This document shows, piece by piece, positions 52,653-62,733 of a DNA stretch of 64,000 bases. Each line of letters starts with the position of its first letter. The stretch's first letter is position 1. A program made the position numbers and the translations under genes. The DNA is from Tritrichomonas foetus (lineage: Eukaryota > Parabasalia > Tritrichomonadida > Tritrichomonadidae). A model generated the notes under the pieces. The model ran no database searches and had not been told where the DNA came from. It saw only the letters and a program-made list of their open reading frames with translations. The stretch is from the NCBI GenBank assembly GCA_001839685.1, contig MLAK01000606.1:28610-92609 (forward strand), in the 5' to 3' direction.

Positions 52653-53099
52653 NNNNNNNNNNNNNNNNNNNNNNNNNNNNNNNNNNNNNNNNNNNNNNNN
52701 NNNNNNNNNNNNNNNNNNNNNNNNNNNNNNNNNNNNNNNNNNNNNNNNNNNNNNNNNNNNNNNNNNNNNNNNNNNNNNNNNNNNNNNNNNNNNNNNNNNN
52801 NNNNNNNNNNNNNNNNNNNNNNNNNNNNNNNNNNNNNNNNNNNNNNNNNNNNNNNNNNNNNNNNNNNNNNNNNNNNNNNNNNNNNNNNNNNNNNNNNNNN
52901 NNNNNNNNNNNNNNNNNNNNNNNNNNNNNNNNNNNNNNNNNNNNNNNNNNNNNNNNNNNNNNNNNNNNNNNNNNNNNNNNNNNNNNNNNNNNNNNNNNNN
53001 NNNNNNNNNNNNNNNNNNNNNNNNNNNNNNNNNNNNNNNNNNNNNNNNNNNNNNNNNNNNNNNNNNNNNNNNNNNNNNNNNNNNNNNNNNNNNNNNNNN
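52653..53099. other. Assembly gap (447 N)
   Basis: Unknown bases. It is flanked on both sides by the 16-bp repeat motif, so the gap is likely repeat-caused. Confidence 0.99.
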
Positions 53100-53298
53100 C
53101 ATCAATGAGATATCTTTCTCGTGTTCCACTTCTTGAAGCAAAAAAAAAATTAACACATAATTAAATAGATAGAACGCTAACCTTTCATAGATAAAACAAA
53201 CCTCTCTTGAGCAATATTATCCTAAAAAAAAAACATATCTCAAATCTGCATATATGGTTTTTAATAAAAAAAAAAAAAAAAAGAAATAAAAAAAATTT

Positions 53299-53553
53299 TT
53301 ATTGTTGAAAAAAAAAATTCGTTACATGGAAAACAGAAAGAATGTTGTTTAAAAAAAAAATAATAACATCGTTTTCATCATCATCTCCATCAAAAAAAAA
53401 AGTACTCGAAATATCATAAAGCTTTTCATTTATCAAAAAAAAACTGAAGTGATGTAAGCATATGTCAGTTGGAGTAAAAAAAAAAAAGATTCCACGAGCC
53501 CGTAACTTGCCACGAATCAAAAAAAAAACTGTTTGATTTAAATATCTTTCCAT
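53299..53553 (-). CDS. LSm/Sm-like RNA-binding protein (sequence damaged by A-overwrite)
   Basis: 84 codons from ATG (53553) to TAA. Between the overwritten codons the text reads MERYLNQTV, IRGKLRARGI, TPTDICLHHFS, INEKLYDISST, DGDDDENDVII and NNILSVFHVTN. The order fits an LSm fold: N-terminal helix/strand 1, an Sm1-like 'G.L.a.G' and '.D..L' stretch, a variable acidic loop, then Sm2. Sm2 normally reads (I/V)-RG-N-N-I; here the three codons before NNI are overwritten, exactly where 'RG' should be. The length suits an LSm subunit of an RNA decay or U6 snRNP ring. The runs of Phe/Leu are artefacts. Which LSm it is cannot be told. Confidence 0.5.
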   Translation of the reverse strand: MERYLNQTVFFLIRGKLRARGIFFFFTPTDICLHHFSFFLINEKLYDISSTFFFDGDDDENDVIIFFLNNILSVFHVTNFFFQQ

Positions 53554-54042
53554 GAGATTCAAAAAAAAATACTTAAACTTTTTAAATAATTATATGGCCG
53601 TAAAAAAAAAATCTCATATGACCAAATTATTTAAGAAAAATCAAAAAAAAAAATGTGAACACTTTTCGTTAATTTGACTAATCATTAAAAAAAAACTGTT
53701 CTCAAAGCACTTTCCAGAGTTGGGATTTAAAAAAAAATAAAATTAAGATTATTAACCAAAAAAAAATTTTAAAAAAAAATGCAGCCTTCAATTGAAAGTG
53801 AAGACAAATTACAAAAAAAAAGACAGTTTAGAGGGCAACTTCATGATCAAATTGAAAAAAAAAACTTTATTTGCATATAACCTAATTGGATACGATAAAA
53901 AAAAACGTGAAATGAAAGGTCAAATAAAGGTCAAAAGTAAAAAAAAAATTATCATTTAAAAAGCTTTTCAAACAAAAGTAAAAAAAAAATTTGGCAATGA
54001 ACTTCAATCGGCCAAATTATAAAAAAAAAAATCATTTCCAAA
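53554..54042. other. Intergenic between divergent genes (overwritten)
   Basis: Contains about 11 overwritten windows. Unmasked stops occur in all three plus frames here (for example the TGA at 53998 and TAA at 54020), so the next gene cannot start earlier in its frame than about 54001. Confidence 0.5.
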
Positions 54043-55602
54043 ATGTTCTTTATTCCCATTTTCTAAAAAAAAATCACCGGTATTTTCACCGTAGGTGGAT
54101 TCACATAAAAAAAAACAAGTTTTTCTACTGTTAAACTAAAATACGCCTAAAAAAAAAATACATCCAATGATTTAATAATTCCAGAGAAAGAAAAAAAAAA
54201 TACTGTTACATTTACAGTAACATCTATCGGTTAAAAAAAAATCAAAAATTTACCCCTGTATCGAGGAAAATTGAAAAAAAAAAATACGATTAAAAGGATT
54301 GAATCGGAAGCTTTTTAAAAAAAAACAGGTTTCACAGAATCTCTCATTTTGCCTAATTAAAAAAAAACAATAGGTGAATATGCATTTTATGGATGTTCGG
54401 AAAAAAAAACAATTTTGAAACTTCCAGAAAATCTCCAAAATGAAAAAAAAAATTCTTTTTATAATTGTTTTCGGTTGTCTGGCCAAAAAAAAATTCCCCA
54501 ATCCATTGCTTCAATTGGTGCCTATGAAAAAAAAAACTGTTCTTCATTTTCAGGTGAACTCCTGCTTCAAAAAAAAATGAAAACAATCAACGAATCTGCC
54601 TTTGAAAAATAAAAAAAAATAGGCGGACATCTTCATTTACCAAATTCACTATAAAAAAAAAGGAAAGGAGCCTTTTCTAACTGCTTGAATTTCAAAAAAA
54701 AAATTGTGATTCCAAACAGTGTTAAGAAAATCAACGAAAAAAAAATCAGTAATTGTCCAAATTTCAATGGAAACATTAAAAAAAAAACTAATGTTGTGAA
54801 AATTGTGGGAACACCGTTTCAAAAAAAAATTCGAATCAAGGAGGTTCACTTTTATGGCAACAAAAAAAAAACAATTGCATTGTACGATTATAGCACCGGA
54901 TGGAAAAAAAAAAACAATCAATATTATGGTACCGAAAAAAAGGGATAAAAAAAAAATGATGATGAAGAGAAAAAAGATTATGATTATCAAAAAAAAAGGG
55001 GTGAAAAAGGCCAGCCTTTTAAAGGAATGTAAAAAAAAATTGTTCACGTACTTCCAAGTTATAAGTCTAGCAAAAAAAAAAGTTTTAATGTAGTAAAGAC
55101 CCTCACATTGACACAAAAAAAAAACCGAACCCCTGTTCCAACTTATGAATCTTTAAAAAAAAAAACAACGTCACAATCATTAACTTCATCTTCAGAAGAA
55201 AAAAAAACTCTAGTGATTAGCGTTTCTGAACAGCCTCAAAAAAAAAAAAATAATGCTGGAAATGAAGCAGACCGCATTAATCAAAAAAAAAAGATAGATA
55301 AAACCACCAAAACATTTTTGTTGGAAAAAAAAAATGGATGCTTGACAATAATTTCGGTTGTCTTGAAAAAAAAAATGTTGTACGTGTTTGTATTGGCTGA
55401 AAATAAATAAAAAAAAAAAAATTTGATTGATGATACCCAACAATATCTCAAAAAAAAAAGTGATGATATTTCGATTCCTCCAATTACTGTGAAAAAAAAA
55501 ATTTGGAAATTTATTGTATATTTTTCGATTGGTAAAAAAAAAATATCTATAATGATCCGAAGGTTTTCTTTCATGTAAAAAAAAACAAATGCACTGCATT
55601 AA
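54043..55602 (+). CDS. BspA-like LRR surface protein (broken only by artificial stops)
   Basis: The frame starting with ATG 54043 runs 519 codons to a genuine TAA at 55600-55602. Its only interruptions are TAA codons where a real T is followed by two overwritten A (54064, 54106, 54148, 54232, 54316, 54358, 54610, 54652, 54946, 55030, 55408, 55576). Visible repeats are classic trichomonad TpLRR/BspA: IGEYAFYGCS, IPQSIASIGAY, NCSSFSGELLL, MKTINESAFE, VIPNSVKKIN and ISNCPNFNGNI. The N-terminus (MFFIPIF...ITGIF) could be a signal peptide. A Thr/Pro/Ser stalk (NRTPVPTYES) precedes a likely membrane helix (GCLTIISVVL...MLYVFVL) and a cytoplasmic tail. BspA-like proteins are the largest surface family of trichomonads and are implicated in adhesion. 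The 'KKK' runs are artefacts. The true start could differ because possible upstream ATGs may be overwritten. Confidence 0.75.
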
Positions 55603-56025
55603 TTCAATCATTACGGATAAAAAAAAAATTTAGGACAATATTCGACCAGATTTTGAAGTTAAAAAAAAATCTTTTATTTCTTTTCCATCAAGGGATCTTC
55701 CTAAAAAAAAAAGCACTTTTGTGGCTATTGATTATCTGTGACCTAAAAAAAAAAATGACAATAAATGATTCATATATTCACTAATTAAAAAAAAAAGAAA
55801 AATAAATGGATGAGAAATAAATCTAGAAAAAAAAAAAATATTTATTTTTAGTCAAAAATTGTATAAATAAAAAAAAAAAAATTGGGGTGAGTTATATATC
55901 TCTATTTGAAAAAAAAAAAAATTCATTCACAATCATTTCCTCCCCATTACAGTTAAAAAAAAAGTTTATTTTGTTAAAGCAAGAAAAATGAATAATAAAA
56001 AAAAAAATCATTCTCAAAAAGTAGA
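55603..56025. other. Intergenic, convergent gene ends (overwritten)
   Basis: AT-rich spacer between the BspA-like gene (+) and the second cyclase (-). Ten overwritten windows; nothing recognisable. Confidence 0.6.
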
Positions 56026-59000
56026 TTAAGCAGTTTCTAAAAAAAAAAATGATCCATTTCTATTGACTGGTTGTCTAACAAAAAAAAAAATTCTTTTACC
56101 TTTTCCTTTAAGTTCAATTTCAAAAAAAAAATCAATATTGAAGTTCATATCAGCAATCAATTCGAAAAAAAAATTTGAGATCTGCACTGTTGATGGAATA
56201 CAAGTTAAAAAAAAACGTGCAGAAACATTAATTGGATCACCAATAATGAAAAAAAAAGGCTTATCTGTACCAAGAATACCTGCAATGAGTAAAAAAAAAG
56301 TATTTACACCAACTCTTGCTTGCAAGTTAGATAAAAAAAAAGAGTTTGCATCTTCAAGCATTACGAGAGAATCAAAAAAAAAAGAAACAACTTGGCTTGC
56401 ATGATTTTGTGGTGGTAAAAAAAAAGTGAAGAGTCCTGCTGCAGCCATGAAAACATCTAAAAAAAAATTAATTTTGGTGATGAGTGGGTATTTAGAGAGT
56501 AAAAAAAAAAATTTAGAGAAAATGATGGTTAAGTTTGCCATAAAAAAAAAAGGTGACAATGTTGCTGAATAATCAGACCACCTAAAAAAAAAAATGAAGA
56601 TGATCGAAGCGGAAGGAACAGAGAAAAAAAAAAAAGTTTCGCCTTTATTTAAGCGAACAACAATATCTAAAAAAAAAATTTGATAAAGAAGACGTTCACT
56701 TTTATCTTTAAAAAAAAAAGCTTCTTCTTTATGCTTTTGCAACAAAGTTTGAAAAAAAAAAACAACAGCAAATGACTTAGCAGCACCATTTTCTAAAAAA
56801 AAAAGAACTGTGGCATGAACTGGAATAGATGTATCAAAAAAAAAATTTGCAACTACATCAGTTTCATATATCATTGAGAAAAAAAAATTTTTCATCAGGT
56901 GCATTTGTTGGTAAACTGCTAAAAAAAAATCTTCTGGAAGAATACAACTAATGCTTTGACCAAAAAAAAAATCTGGAGTGTAGCCGAATAAATCAGTAAC
57001 TGCCAAAAAAAAAACTTCAATTGATTCATTCTTGTTTAAACAGAAAAAAAAAAAATTGGACATATGAATCATTGATTTAGCAGCTGTCAAAAAAAAATCA
57101 TTCTTTGTTTCTTTCTTATGAAGTAAAAAGAAAAAAAAATTTTTATTAGATGAAAACGCAATCGGCGGAATAAAAAAAAAAAGTTGGATTCCACCCTGAT
57201 AAGCTTTATCAAGTAAAAAAAAATTGAAGAAAATAACTGGAATCGATAAACATGAAAAAAAAAAACCAATAATTAATAAAATTAACAGAATTTGTCTGAA
57301 AAAAAAAATTGATTTTTCAGCATTGTTGTTCAGAAGTTCAAAAAAAAAAAACATCAAATCAACCAAGTGTACATTAGCGCTAAAAAAAAAATTATAGTAT
57401 GAACCATTTACAGAAAGTGAGAAAAAAAAAAAATGTCGTAAGATTTCTGTCACAAGTGATATGAAAAAAAAAAAAAGGTTTTCTAAGCTTCCACAACGAT
57501 ATGTATCAAAAAAAAAACCATCCGGATCACCATCACATGTTTCGGAAAAGAAAAAAAAATCAACTCTTGTGTCGAGACCAACACAAGGTGGAAAAAAAAA
57601 AGAACCTTTCAATAAGTTACCATTTGCACGCTTTAAAAAAAAAATTGAATTCCATCCTTTTCTTTGTGCTTCAGTAAAAAAAAAAAAATCGTTCTTAAAT
57701 TTCGGCTTTTGAATAACAAAAAAAAAAGTTGCATAAATAACAGCTTCGAAGACATGGTAAAAAAAAAAAATACTCTGGAATAGCCATTCATTCAAATACA
57801 AGAAAAAAAAATTTTCATTTCCTGCACAAAGGATCACAGCAAGCAAAAAAAAAATTGCTATCACCAAATATGTCATTATATAAACAAAAAAAAAATGAAT
57901 ATTAATCTTTTTATCATTAAGTGAATCAAAAAAAAAATCTTCGATGCAATCAGTATCATATTTGAATGGCAAAAAAAAATGGTCTTGAATCTGTGGATCT
58001 AAACCAGTCATTAAAAAAAAAAATTGTCGTAATTCTTGGTAATACTTATACATGAAAAAAAAAAATGTAGGGATGGTAATGACACTATATCCAATGAAAA
58101 AAAAAAATCCAATTATTTTATTCTCTACCGAAATCATTAAAAAAAAATCTCTAATTTGAGTCCGAATGTTACTAACCATAAAAAAAAAAGATGTTGCAAT
58201 TGGTTCCAAATTACTAAAGAGGAAAAAAAAATTATCATCTAATCTCCATTTTGTTGGATCAGGTAAAAAAAAATTAGTAACAGTTGAAACTTCACGGAAT
58301 TTCATTAAAAAAAAATACAAACCAACTTTTAAGGTTTGATTAGTGGGTAAAAAAAAATGTCTACCAGAAGAACAAAATGTAATGGGAGTTAAAAAAAAAG
58401 TAAGTTGATACATGAAACTACGAGCATCAACAAAAAAAAAAGCTAAATCTAGAGCGCTTGCTAAAAAGCTTTCTAAAAAAAAATAACTAAAATCTTGCCA
58501 TCGAACAACTTCTTGAAAAAAAAAATTGGCGAAATTCAAATTATACTTATTTGATATTAAAAAAAAATTCTTCATATCAACAAGGAGATCTTCCGAATAT
58601 AAAAAAAAACCTTCAATCCATGTGAAACAAATTGTTGTAATTAAAAAAAAAATTCCATAACGAACAAGACTCCATAAGTAAAGGAAAAAAAAAGAAGATT
58701 GCATGATATCGAAGCGATTGTAATAGAAAAAAAAAAAGAATAGAAGAATACCCAACAAAATAATTGCAAAAAAAAAAGTAAAACTCTTTAAAATTGAAGA
58801 ATAAGGACTTAAAAAAAAATCAAAGGCACGTTGAAAAGCAAGCCTAAGTCTAAAAAAAAAAAACATTTGTTTGGCAAGTGTTTCTTCAACTTCTAAAAAA
58901 AAATCACCATCAATTGTACCTGAAGAAACAGTAGATAAAAAAAAACTTGAGGTTTGCGTGCCATTATTGCCTTTCTTTAAAAAAAAAGAATAACCGCGGA

Positions 59001-60825
59001 TATCAAAGAGATTTTGCTTTAAAAAAAAAGGAGCAATATGAATTAATGATCTGAATGAATAAAAAAAAAAAAAATTCTTACCTTGTTCGATTAAATTGAT
59101 TCTAAAAAAAAAATTAACACCATTTTCAAAATCTGTTCCAATTTCAAAAAAAAAATTCAAATATTCTTCAACAAGACGGACATTATTCAAAAAAAAAGAC
59201 ATTGCTTCATTCAATTCAGCTTCACCTATTAAAAAAAAAGTTCGAAGTTGATATAAAAAGTCAGGGGAGTTGAAAAAAAAATTCCAAAAGTTGTGGCTAC
59301 CTGTAATTCCCTTAAAAAAAAAATGTCTCACATTAATTAAATATTCTCTAATTTCAAAAAAAAAACTGGATTGTCTTAAACTCATGATTTGGTTCACTAA
59401 AAAAAAAAAGAATCGTTGTGCATAGGTATGACCGAATTTTAAAAAAAAATTTGCGAAGAAGAGTTTCAAAAGTCGAATTTCAAAAAAAAAAAGTGCCAAC
59501 ACTTGAATCAAAAAGCAAACCGTCAAAAAAAAAGACTGATAGACATCAAAGCAGTATTTCAAGAGAAAAAAAAAAACAATGAAGTCAGAACATGTCATTA
59601 AACCGATAAAAAAAAAAAAATTACAATAAATTGAATATTTATCTACTTTCAAAAAAAAAAACCATTGATGTTTCATTTCATCAGTGATTATTAAAAAAAA
59701 ATCTTCTTCAGCAGCCATCATGGTTTTGAACATGAAAAAAAAAGAAGTTCGTTTGAAAACAGTATTCATGATTGGAAAAAAAAAAGCACAGCCGCCGATG
59801 AAAGTACACACAGAAATAAAAAAAAAAGACAAGAAATTATCATCAAGTTCAACAATCGCAAAAAAAAAACCAAATGATGTAAAAATACCGCTAGTCAAAA
59901 CAAAAAAAAAAATTCCATTGGCAGAAGGCTGCATATATGGCATAGTAAACATAAAGACCATAAGGCAAATACAGTACACAATGAAAAAAAAAAAAAATAA
60001 GAGATGCATCCATTTTGCATAATTCATCAAAAAAAAAGAAACGAATGTAAATAAAGAATAAACGCCAACTAAAAAAAAATGAATAGAACTGTGAAATGTT
60101 GCCATTGTATTGAAAAAAAAAAATGGACTATTTGTTGATAATCGTTCAACGAAAAAAAAAAAAATCAAAATAACAAAGTAAAAAATAATTGTGAAAAAAA
60201 AAAAAATTATTTCTGTTGTTTGCGGTTGATAAATTATTAAAAAAAAAAAATTGCCGGCAAGTGATGCAAGTGGAATAACAAAAAAAAAAGGTATGAGTTG
60301 TAAAATAATTCTTGATGCAATGAAAAAAAAATTGATCGATTTTTTGGTTTTGAAATAATAACTGATTGAAATACACAAAAATAAAGCAGATAGGAATATC
60401 AAGACTAAAAAAAAAATAAAAGTAATCATCTGGTCACCAATTGCCAGAAAAAAAAAAGCAATATTGGATGAAGAGCTGTTGGTCAAATTTAAAAAAAAAA
60501 TGGTTGAATTAACCGCAGAACTGGCGGTTGAAAAAAAAAAAAATGCTACGCGAAAAATATAATTGAGATTTGGAAAAAAAAAATGGATGTCATAAAGATA
60601 AGTAAAGCCTGGCCATAAAAAAAAAACCATCATTTGGTAGATTTGATAAGCGGTGAGGAAAAAAAAAAGGCCATCTGGTAAAGATGTAGTTTTTAATACT
60701 AAAAAAAAAAATGGAAAAACGCGATCGAAGAAGCTACGAGGTAAAAAAAAACTATCGATGTGCATCTTTTCGAGGGATGTCGTCAAAAAAAAAATTACAG
60801 ATGAAGGGGCGATGCTTGCCTGCAT
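56026..60825 (-). CDS. Second multi-pass PAS/nucleotidyl cyclase (sequence damaged by A-overwrite)
   Basis: 1599 codons from ATG 60825 to an unaffected TAA at 56026-56028, one residue longer than the cyclase at 1279-6075. Every 14 residues three codons are overwritten and read FF(F/L); the preceding codon's third base is also changed. Between them the family is clear. There are many membrane helices, a PAS-like part (LNKNESIEV, AVTDLFGYTPD, GQSISCILPED), and a cyclase domain at the C-terminus (WSDYSATLSP, DVFMAAAGLF, RVGVN, AGILGTDKP, GDPINVSAR). The first metal Asp and the 'IG' before the second are overwritten, and a Lys-to-Asn change at the base-selecting site (TKIN) is best explained by the third base becoming T. 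The catalytic Arg of NVSAR is present, unlike in the first cyclase. An alternative upstream start is possible, because 60827-60835 is overwritten. Confidence 0.85.
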   Translation of the reverse strand: MQASIAPSSVIFFLTTSLEKMHIDSFFLPRSFFDRVFPFFFLVLKTTSLPDGLFFFLTAYQIYQMMVFFLWPGFTYLYDIHFFFPNLNYIFRVAFFFFSTASSAVNSTIFFLNLTNSSSSNIAFFFLAIGDQMITFIFFLVLIFLSALFLCISISYYFKTKKSINFFFIASRIILQLIPFFFVIPLASLAGNFFFLIIYQPQTTEIIFFFFTIIFYFVILIFFFFVERLSTNSPFFFFNTMATFHSSIHFFLVGVYSLFTFVSFFLMNYAKWMHLLFFFFFIVYCICLMVFMFTMPYMQPSANGIFFFVLTSGIFTSFGFFFAIVELDDNFLSFFFISVCTFIGGCAFFFPIMNTVFKRTSFFFMFKTMMAAEEDFFLIITDEMKHQWFFFLKVDKYSIYCNFFFFIGLMTCSDFIVFFFLLKYCFDVYQSFFLTVCFLIQVLALFFFEIRLLKLFFANFFLKFGHTYAQRFFFFLVNQIMSLRQSSFFFEIREYLINVRHFFFKGITGSHNFWNFFFNSPDFLYQLRTFFLIGEAELNEAMSFFLNNVRLVEEYLNFFFEIGTDFENGVNFFFRINLIEQGKNFFFFYSFRSLIHIAPFFLKQNLFDIRGYSFFLKKGNNGTQTSSFFLSTVSSGTIDGDFFLEVEETLAKQMFFFFRLRLAFQRAFDFFLSPYSSILKSFTFFFAIILLGILLFFFFFYYNRFDIMQSSFFFLYLWSLVRYGIFFLITTICFTWIEGFFLYSEDLLVDMKNFFLISNKYNLNFANFFFQEVVRWQDFSYFFLESFLASALDLAFFFVDARSFMYQLTFFLTPITFCSSGRHFFLPTNQTLKVGLYFFLMKFREVSTVTNFFLPDPTKWRLDDNFFFLFSNLEPIATSFFFMVSNIRTQIRDFFLMISVENKIIGFFFFIGYSVITIPTFFFFMYKYYQELRQFFFLMTGLDPQIQDHFFLPFKYDTDCIEDFFFDSLNDKKINIHFFFVYIMTYLVIAIFFLLAVILCAGNENFFFLYLNEWLFQSIFFFYHVFEAVIYATFFFVIQKPKFKNDFFFFTEAQRKGWNSIFFLKRANGNLLKGSFFFPPCVGLDTRVDFFFFSETCDGDPDGFFFDTYRCGSLENLFFFFISLVTEILRHFFFFSLSVNGSYYNFFFSANVHLVDLMFFFFELLNNNAEKSIFFFRQILLILLIIGFFFSCLSIPVIFFNFFLLDKAYQGGIQLFFFIPPIAFSSNKNFFFFLLHKKETKNDFFLTAAKSMIHMSNFFFFCLNKNESIEVFFLAVTDLFGYTPDFFFGQSISCILPEDFFLAVYQQMHLMKNFFFSMIYETDVVANFFFDTSIPVHATVLFFLENGAAKSFAVVFFFQTLLQKHKEEAFFFKDKSERLLYQIFFLDIVVRLNKGETFFFFSVPSASIIFIFFFRWSDYSATLSPFFFMANLTIIFSKFFFLLSKYPLITKINFFLDVFMAAAGLFTFFLPPQNHASQVVSFFFDSLVMLEDANSFFLSNLQARVGVNTFFLLIAGILGTDKPFFFIIGDPINVSARFFLTCIPSTVQISNFFFELIADMNFNIDFFFEIELKGKGKRIFFFVRQPVNRNGSFFFLETA

Positions 60826-62547
60826 TAAAAAAAAACTATCTTTTTTCTGTTTCAAATTGATAAACCTCAAAAAAAAATATAGTTACACATTTATTTGAAG
60901 CATTTTTAGAAAAAAAAAATAGTTGATTTAATTTATTGAATATTTAGAAATTAAAAAAAAAATCATTGACATGCATTCTTTTTGTGAATATTTAAAAAAA
61001 AAACAAATAAATTATGAGAAAAATGAAAATGATGATAAAAAAAAAACTAAAATGATATAACGGATGAACTACTCAAAAAAAAAAAAAAAAGTCTAATGAT
61101 ATTATTTATTCAATGTGTGGAAAAAAAAATTCTATGAATTCAATAATGAATATATTATAGAAAAAAAAAAATGTTTTGAATGAATATTATTAGGGAATAT
61201 TAATAAAAAAAAAATTTTTGAATATTTTATGATTCATCTCTATGAAAAAAAAAAACTTTGAAAACAAATTGTGGAAAATATGGTAAAAAAAAAAAAATTT
61301 TAAAAAAGGTAAACCCTTTTACATGATGTAAAAAAAAAATGATATATTCTATGATAAAATGTTCATAAAATAAAAAAAAAACTATAGATATATAAATGAT
61401 CATAAATAAATAATAAAAAAAAATATAATCTCAATTGATTTCTAGATATAGATCATAAAAAAAAATATTCGTTTTGATATTTCAAGTATTTAAAATTTAA
61501 AAAAAAATCAACCATTTCATTTTCATTCGCCTTTGTCTTTAAAAAAAAACGATTTTTAATTTAGATATCGTGGATATTCCCAAAAAAAAAATATTTCGAG
61601 TGAATTGAATGAATAATTGAAATCAAAAAAAAAAAATTGAATTAACTTACATCACAACTTATTTTAAAAAAAAAATACCAATTTCGCAATGAATAAAGAA
61701 ATATGCCAAAAAAAAAAAGATGATTCTATTTGCTCTACATTTTCAAGATAAAAAAAAAAAAAATAAAACGGTATTTCAGGTTAAGTTATTCAAAAAAAAA
61801 ATAATTAATTCAATATGTTTCTCAACAAATTGTGAAAAAAAAATGAAAATCTTTTATTTCTTTAGAAAATTGATTTAAAAAAAAATATAAAATTCGTTCA
61901 ATTTTCTTCAAAGACTTGAAAAAAAAACAATATTTTGGTTCGCAAAATGAATATCAAATAAAAAAAAAATCATGTTCTATTACCTAAAAGATATCCTTGA
62001 GAAAAAAAAAAAAACTTTGATGAACACTTTTTCCTCACAAACAAAAAAAAAAAAAAAATGTTCACTGTCAAAATTTAAATTGAATAAAAAAAAAATCCAA
62101 TGGTTGGCGAATTCTCCTGCCGAAAAGCAAAAAAAAACGTGAATTTCTTGAGAAATCATGCCATTTCTTTAAAAAAAAAGAGCTATTGTTTATTGTCAAA
62201 TATGTCGCATCAAAAAAAAAACATCAAGTAAAATTATAGATAAATTAGTTTTCTAAAAAAAAATAAATTTTTCTTAAGAAATATTTCTATGTTTGGAAAA
62301 AAAAACTAATCAATTTTCAAAGATGTCTCAATTCATCCAAAAAAAAACGGAAATTCTGATTCCCCACTTTTTCAATGAATAAAAAAAAATAAACAAATTC
62401 CAAAAAATGGAAAGTACGATAAAAAAAAAAAGTTATCATATCAATCCAATACAACTTTCCATTTAAAAAAAAAAATTTAGAAACGCAAAAACAGTAGATT
62501 TAATTTAAAAAAAAATATAGAATTTTATTGACCCGAAATGAAAACAC

Positions 62548-62582
<35 letters not shown>
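60826..62582. other. Intergenic, contig end (overwritten)
   Basis: About 1.75 kb of AT-rich DNA with overwritten windows up to 62557, then a run of about 30 A (62549-62578) and TTTT before the N. No gene seen on either strand. Confidence 0.6.
62397..62506 (+). repeat. 110-bp duplicate, overwritten copy
   Basis: Identical to 62584-62693 at every position (offset 187) except inside the two overwritten windows 62423-62431 and 62465-62473. It is probably an unmerged contig overlap rather than a genomic repeat. Confidence 0.9.
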
Positions 62583-62583
62583 N
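62583..62583. other. Single N at a contig junction
   Basis: One ambiguous base separates the overwritten contig from the normal one. The 110-bp duplicate starts immediately after it. Confidence 0.95.
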
Positions 62584-62693
62584 ATTCCAAAAAATGGAAA
62601 GTACGATAAACACAAAAAGTTATCATATCAATCCAATACAACTTTCCATTTTCTTGAACCAATTTAGAAACGCAAAAACAGTAGATTTAATTT
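62584..62693 (+). repeat. 110-bp duplicate, intact copy
   Basis: Shows the native bases hidden in the overwritten copy: ACACAAAAA at 62610-62618 and TCTTGAACC at 62652-62660. Confidence 0.9.
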
Positions 62694-62733
62694 AATGAAA
62701 AAGAAAGAAATGAAAAAGAAAGAAATGAAAAAG

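What the first reader, a model, noticed from the sequence alone, without database searches (positions are those of the whole stretch)
53225..62557. Nine A in every 42 bases, 223 times without drift: a contig-wide overwrite
Seen directly: exact 42-base phase from 53225 to 62549, crossing genes on both strands and intergenic DNA, with windows exactly 9 long wherever flanking bases are not A. Because 42 is a multiple of 3, long frames survive with a fake FFF/KKK every 14 residues. The pattern lies only in the contig between the 447-N gap and the N at 62583. I infer corruption of a consensus or file, not biology. About one base in five of this contig (9/42) is unreliable, and tools will report false low-complexity proteins, false stops and false homopolymers. 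Databases may carry these as real proteins.
Basis: partly seen in the sequence, partly recalled or inferred. Interest (0 to 1): 0.9.

Follow-up and report, generated by a model that had tools for sequence, protein, structure and literature searches.

The report
Contig overwritten with periodic A's
One 9.5-kb piece of a draft parasite genome has had nine bases in nearly every 42 replaced by A, most likely by a computer error, so the odd pattern is a data fault and not biology.

Summary
In the contig 53100-62582 (9,483 bases) nine-A windows begin at contig positions 42, 84, 126 and so on; 222 of 225 are all A, three are spared. Shuffled contigs reach at most 4 windows in one phase, clean stretches of equal length at most 1. 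The A's replaced other bases. (1) Across the single N at 62583 the contig end repeats: 92 of 92 retained bases agree, 11 of 27 overwritten ones differ, spacing unchanged. (2) Ten copies of a dispersed repeat match at 86% of retained and 43% of overwritten positions. (3) Four adenylate-cyclase homologues match at 50-59% of retained and 8-9% of overwritten residues. (4) In one forward frame with BspA-type LRR matches, all ten stops lie in overwritten codons. The software cause and the reason for the spared windows are unknown. Two searches did not find the corrupted cyclase in a protein collection. Not a biological feature.

The parts
53100..62582 (.). corrupted contig of 9,483 bases: nine A's from every contig position that is a multiple of 42; 222 of 225 windows
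53183..53191 (.). spared window k=2
59945..59953 (.). spared window k=163, inside the cyclase frame
60365..60373 (.). spared window k=173, inside the cyclase frame
62397..62515 (+). corrupted copy of the contig-end overlap (92 retained positions, 27 overwritten)
62584..62702 (+). clean copy of the same 119 bases, across the single N
62583..62583 (.). single N that ends the corrupted contig
52653..53099 (.). 447-N gap; the 42-base phase is in register with its end
56026..60825 (-). adenylate cyclase frame (1,599 codons, open), with Phe runs every 14 residues from the overwrite
54001..55205 (+). stretch of a forward frame with BspA-type LRR (LRR_5) matches at 54361-54609 and, just under Pfam's cut-off, 54655-54948; all 10 stops in its 401 codons are in overwritten codons
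62224..62339 (.). copy of a dispersed genomic repeat, used as internal control
53903..53946 (.). copy of a 44-base dispersed repeat; weak control, because its copies are A-rich at the overwritten places

Best explanation
The pattern is an in-silico overwrite of one assembly contig. Shown: in register with the contig's first base, nine bases from nearly every 42nd position (222 of 225) are A in place of other bases, without change of length where this could be checked, across genes on both strands; the retained bases tested are authentic. Inferred (about 0.6): it arose in the depositors' assembly, scaffolding or gap-closing files while this contig was a separate record, because the damage runs from contig end to contig end and stops at a single N. 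Inferred (about 0.3): A is the zero or default code of a 2-bit base encoding, so the blocks are missing or zeroed data printed as A. Which program did it, and why three windows escaped, is not known. The confidence below is for the overwrite itself, whatever its stage.
For: Phase exact over 225 windows and in register with the contig's first base. Overlap with the clean neighbour: retained 92 of 92 identical, overwritten 11 of 27 different, same spacing. Ten copies of a dispersed repeat: identity 888 of 1,035 at retained and 112 of 262 at overwritten positions, while the copies agree among themselves (share of the majority base) at 0.915 and 0.868. Cyclase against four homologues: fully overwritten columns 17-19 of 215-219 identical (8-9%), partly overwritten 23-29%, retained 50-59%; four homologue pairs agree at 60-80% in the fully overwritten columns. 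Of 94 fully overwritten columns invariant in the four homologues 11 are kept, and those 11 are the ones whose residue is F anyway; of 419 retained ones 363 are kept. In one LRR-bearing forward frame 10 of 10 stops in 401 codons lie in overwritten codons. The clean part of the window and 40 other loci lack the phase.
Against: Three windows are spared without a visible reason. The last 67 bases of the contig (62516-62582) do not match the clean neighbour, at retained positions too, so the overlap test covers only 119 bases. Ten other single N's examined show no shared flank of 15 bases or more, so the overlap at 62583 is not the rule for single N's here. The 44-base repeat test is weak: identity 118 of 142 at overwritten, 386 of 424 at retained positions. 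The two spared windows in the cyclase frame match each homologue at only 2-3 of 8 residues, too few to say much. No reads or independent assembly of this locus were seen, so the stage of the error is inference. The register with the contig start rests on one contig; by chance it would have odds of about 1 in 42.
Confidence: 0.95

Rival explanations
This shares the artefact reading and differs only in the stage.
For: Exact arithmetic with about 1% of windows skipped would also suit a deliberate script.
Against: An intact deposit would be expected to give an intact cyclase of about 1,590 residues in the protein collection, as for its T. foetus homologues and for the exportin of the same contig. 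No row is on a contig of 92,609 bases. A missing gene call would explain that too. Withheld stretches are said to read N, not A. The phase is in register with an assembly contig.
Confidence: 0.3
2. Real DNA: a phased A-tract array (42 bases is four helical turns of 10.5, recalled) that bends the DNA.
For: The spacing is an integer number of helical turns.
Against: No drift over 225 positions; it crosses coding sequence on both strands and removes conserved residues; a clean copy next door and genomic repeat copies have other bases there; it ends at assembly breaks.
Confidence: 0.003
3. Insertion of nine A's after every 33 bases, instead of replacement.
For: Nine is a multiple of 3, so frames would survive insertion too.
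Against: Clean and corrupted overlap copies have equal spacing. The cyclase aligns to homologues of 1,562-1,596 residues with gaps at only 5-9 of 224 fully overwritten columns.
Confidence: 0.002

Closest known systems
Consensus or file corruption in draft assemblies; missing bases printed as A (recalled as a habit of 2-bit encoders)
   Same: A default letter stands in place of real sequence
   Different: A strict 9-in-42 phase in register with the first base of one contig. I recall no program fault with this signature; the listings of four literature searches (two of them capped lists) showed none
Phased A-tracts (curved DNA), recalled
   Same: Regular A runs at a multiple of the helical repeat
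   Different: Here the runs replace coding and repeat sequence and stop at assembly breaks

Membership tests
Sequence-data corruption (overwrite artefact) | A clean copy of the same stretch has other bases at equal length | tested here: met
   92 of 92 retained identical, 11 of 27 overwritten different; 119 bases only
Sequence-data corruption (overwrite artefact) | Affected positions ignore genes, strand and conservation | tested here: met
Sequence-data corruption (overwrite artefact) | Bounded by assembly breaks | tested here: met
Sequence-data corruption (overwrite artefact) | Absent from raw reads or another assembly of the species | not testable with these tools
   no tool here holds reads; other T. 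foetus assemblies are named in PMC11415386 (passages) but I found no way to read them here
Phased A-tract DNA | A runs present in related copies of the same sequence | tested here: not met
   in the 62224-62339 repeat the majority of copies is not A at 16 of 27 overwritten positions; in the A-rich 44-base repeat at 2 of 12

The most novel reading that the evidence does not exclude
An undescribed fault of a genome-assembly or gap-closing program that zero-fills part of each 42-base block of a contig, leaves a detectable phase, and affects further contigs and other deposited genomes made with the same program.
Probability: 0.2. Interest if true: 0.35.

Novelty: not a real feature. Interest (0 to 1): 0.12.

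Why it matters
It is a data-quality warning. In this contig 21% of positions (1,998 of 9,483) cannot be trusted. A forward frame with LRR matches looks broken by TAA codons that the overwrite makes, and an adenylate cyclase gains Phe runs and loses conserved residues. Users of this assembly should leave out or replace this contig. The phase is easy to scan for in other assemblies.

Tried and rejected
Placing P0001 in the genome by protein search did not complete. Insertion instead of replacement: rejected by equal spacing in the overlap. Real phased A-tracts: rejected. Reason for the three spared windows: I looked at their letters and flanks and found none. Fitting 42 and 9 to word sizes or k-mer lengths was only thought about; nothing fitted. 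The 44-base repeat as a control is weak. Flank overlap at other single N's: ten examined (L010, L026, L028, L030, L032), none shares 15 bases or more; two N's in L040, fetched later, were not examined.

Full report
What was checked. The contig between the 447-N gap (52653-53099) and the single N at 62583 is 53100-62582, 9,483 bases. Nine columns of the 42-base frame are 99-100% A and the other 33 are 23-43% A. In contig coordinates the windows begin at 42k for k=1 to 225, and 222 of 225 are all A; the next would lie beyond the contig end. The exceptions are k=2, 163 and 173. The last window lies inside a longer A run. The best phase holds 222 windows, against at most 4 in 200 mononucleotide shuffles and at most 1 in 44 overlapping clean stretches of the same length. 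The retained bases (A 0.347, T 0.337, G and C 0.158 each) are close in composition to the clean upstream 52,652 bases (A 0.351, T 0.353, C 0.149, G 0.147).

Replacement, not insertion. The contig's end and the next contig's start share a stretch. 62397-62515 and 62584-62702 align without gaps: 92 retained positions have no mismatch, and 27 overwritten positions have 11. Against this test: the last 67 bases of the corrupted contig do not match the neighbour, at retained positions too, and ten other single N's examined show no such overlap. Part of the shared stretch is a dispersed repeat: the clean copy (137 bases) has 42 matches in the genome, a lower bound. The corrupted copy matches 1-126 of it, while the 40 matches elsewhere end at base 100 or before, so I read the two as one locus represented twice.

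Repeat copies as a control. 62224-62339 is a copy of a repeat: one search gave 42 matches to its query, of which one is the window itself and one lies elsewhere in the query, leaving 40. I fetched the first 10 of these 40. The window agrees with them at 888 of 1,035 retained positions (86%) and 112 of 262 overwritten ones (43%). The copies agree among themselves (mean share of the majority base) at 0.915 of retained and 0.868 of overwritten positions, and at 16 of 27 overwritten positions the majority is not A. A second repeat, 53903-53946, had 41 other copies; 11 were used (10 and the one in L025). It is a weak control: 386 of 424 retained (91%) and 118 of 142 overwritten (83%), with a non-A majority at 2 of 12 overwritten positions, because the copies are A-rich there.

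Genes. 56026-60825 on the minus strand is an open frame of 1,599 codons with a Guanylate_cyc domain (PF00211, E 1.9e-13). Ten database proteins match; the best is a T. foetus cyclase at 46% identity. Against P0001-P0004 (4 of those 10) retained residues are 59, 51, 50 and 50% identical, partly overwritten ones 29, 23, 26 and 23%, and fully overwritten ones 8.8, 8.7, 7.8 and 8.4%; four homologue pairs agree at 60-80% in the fully overwritten columns. Of 94 fully overwritten columns invariant in the four homologues 11 are kept (those already F); of 419 retained ones 363 are kept. In the catalytic domain a Phe run stands where the four homologues have DIV; that this Asp binds metal in class III cyclases is recalled. 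The two spared windows in this frame match each homologue at 2-3 of 8 residues, and homologue pairs match at 1-4 of 8, so they say little. Why this frame stays open: by its register the minus-strand T block gives codons xxT, TTT, TTT and TTx, none a stop (reasoning from coordinates). On the plus strand the same blocks make TAA where a T precedes them in the right frame. In one forward frame of 54001-55205 (401 codons) there are 10 stops, all in overwritten codons. Two pieces of that frame match the BspA-type LRR family LRR_5 (E 6.4e-12; and 6.5e-6 at 26.5 bits, below the cut-off of 27.7).

Which genome. The window is the last 64,000 bases of a 92,609-base contig in an assembly of 63,729,861 bases in 1,064 contigs. 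The exportin of the clean part is in the protein collection on a contig of 92,609 bases. Two proteins named Tritrichomonas foetus, P0001 and P0007, lie on contigs of 50,669 and 122,308 bases, and contigs of exactly those lengths are in this assembly (C500; C128). I infer the T. foetus strain K draft. [quoted passage not shown] the smaller size here would need scaffolds to be left out, which I did not check. The later chromosome-level paper (PMC11415386; listing and passages only) names the strain K and Belfast assemblies; the passages do not mention this fault.

Extent. No phase of 42 with more than 2 A9 or T9 windows was seen in L003-L042 (40 loci, 234,419 non-N bases), nor more than 2 A9 windows in the clean 52,652 bases of the window. 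Together that is under 0.5% of the genome and not a random sample: 18 of the 40 loci were brought in by a repeat and 3 are from the same scaffold. L043-L062 (about 300 bases each) were not scanned. L001 and L002 overlap the corrupted contig and show it.

Databases. Two protein searches, with the whole cyclase frame and with its last 599 residues, returned 10 and 14 proteins. No row is on a contig of 92,609 bases, and the highest identities are 46 and 43%, so neither the corrupted protein nor an intact version of it was found. Limits: only proteins of 0.55 to 1.75 times the query length are candidates, and one search scored the 8,000 candidates sharing most words. The LRR pieces were not tested. 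The lack of an intact entry slightly favours corruption already in the deposit, but a missing gene call would give the same result.

Mechanism. Shown: A in place of other bases at fixed contig positions. Inferred: it happened while the contig was a separate record, because the phase is in register with its first base and the damage ends at a single N. A may be the zero code of a 2-bit encoding (recalled, untested). The cause of the 42-base block and of the three spared windows is unknown. Literature listings showed no description of such a fault: 4 of 4 papers listed; 15 of 74; 10 of 733; 7 of 7; listings only, so this is weak evidence of absence.

Noticed in passing
L028:3500-3529: An exact 30-base match to the Nextera mate-pair junction adapter (sequence recalled, searched after part of it was seen), just after a single N; 1 of 62 loci has it, and a 21-base part with up to 2 mismatches has no match in the window. 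Probable adapter remnant in the assembly.
   Followed up: partly
L026:116, L028:105 and 108, L030:107: Single N's at about 105-116 bases from the scaffold start in 3 of 15 scaffold starts held, two of which begin with long N runs.
   Followed up: no
window:62224-62339 and window:62584-62667: Two dispersed repeats of about 85-115 bases, each with about 40 scored matches elsewhere in the genome, a lower bound.
   Followed up: partly
window:53903-53946: A 44-base dispersed repeat; on C215 two copies face each other within about 270 bases (161073-161116 + and 161301-161344 -), as in a small inverted-repeat element.
   Followed up: no
window:1279-6075: A second adenylate cyclase frame of 1,598 codons, on the plus strand in the clean part of the window.
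   Followed up: no
   Followed up: no
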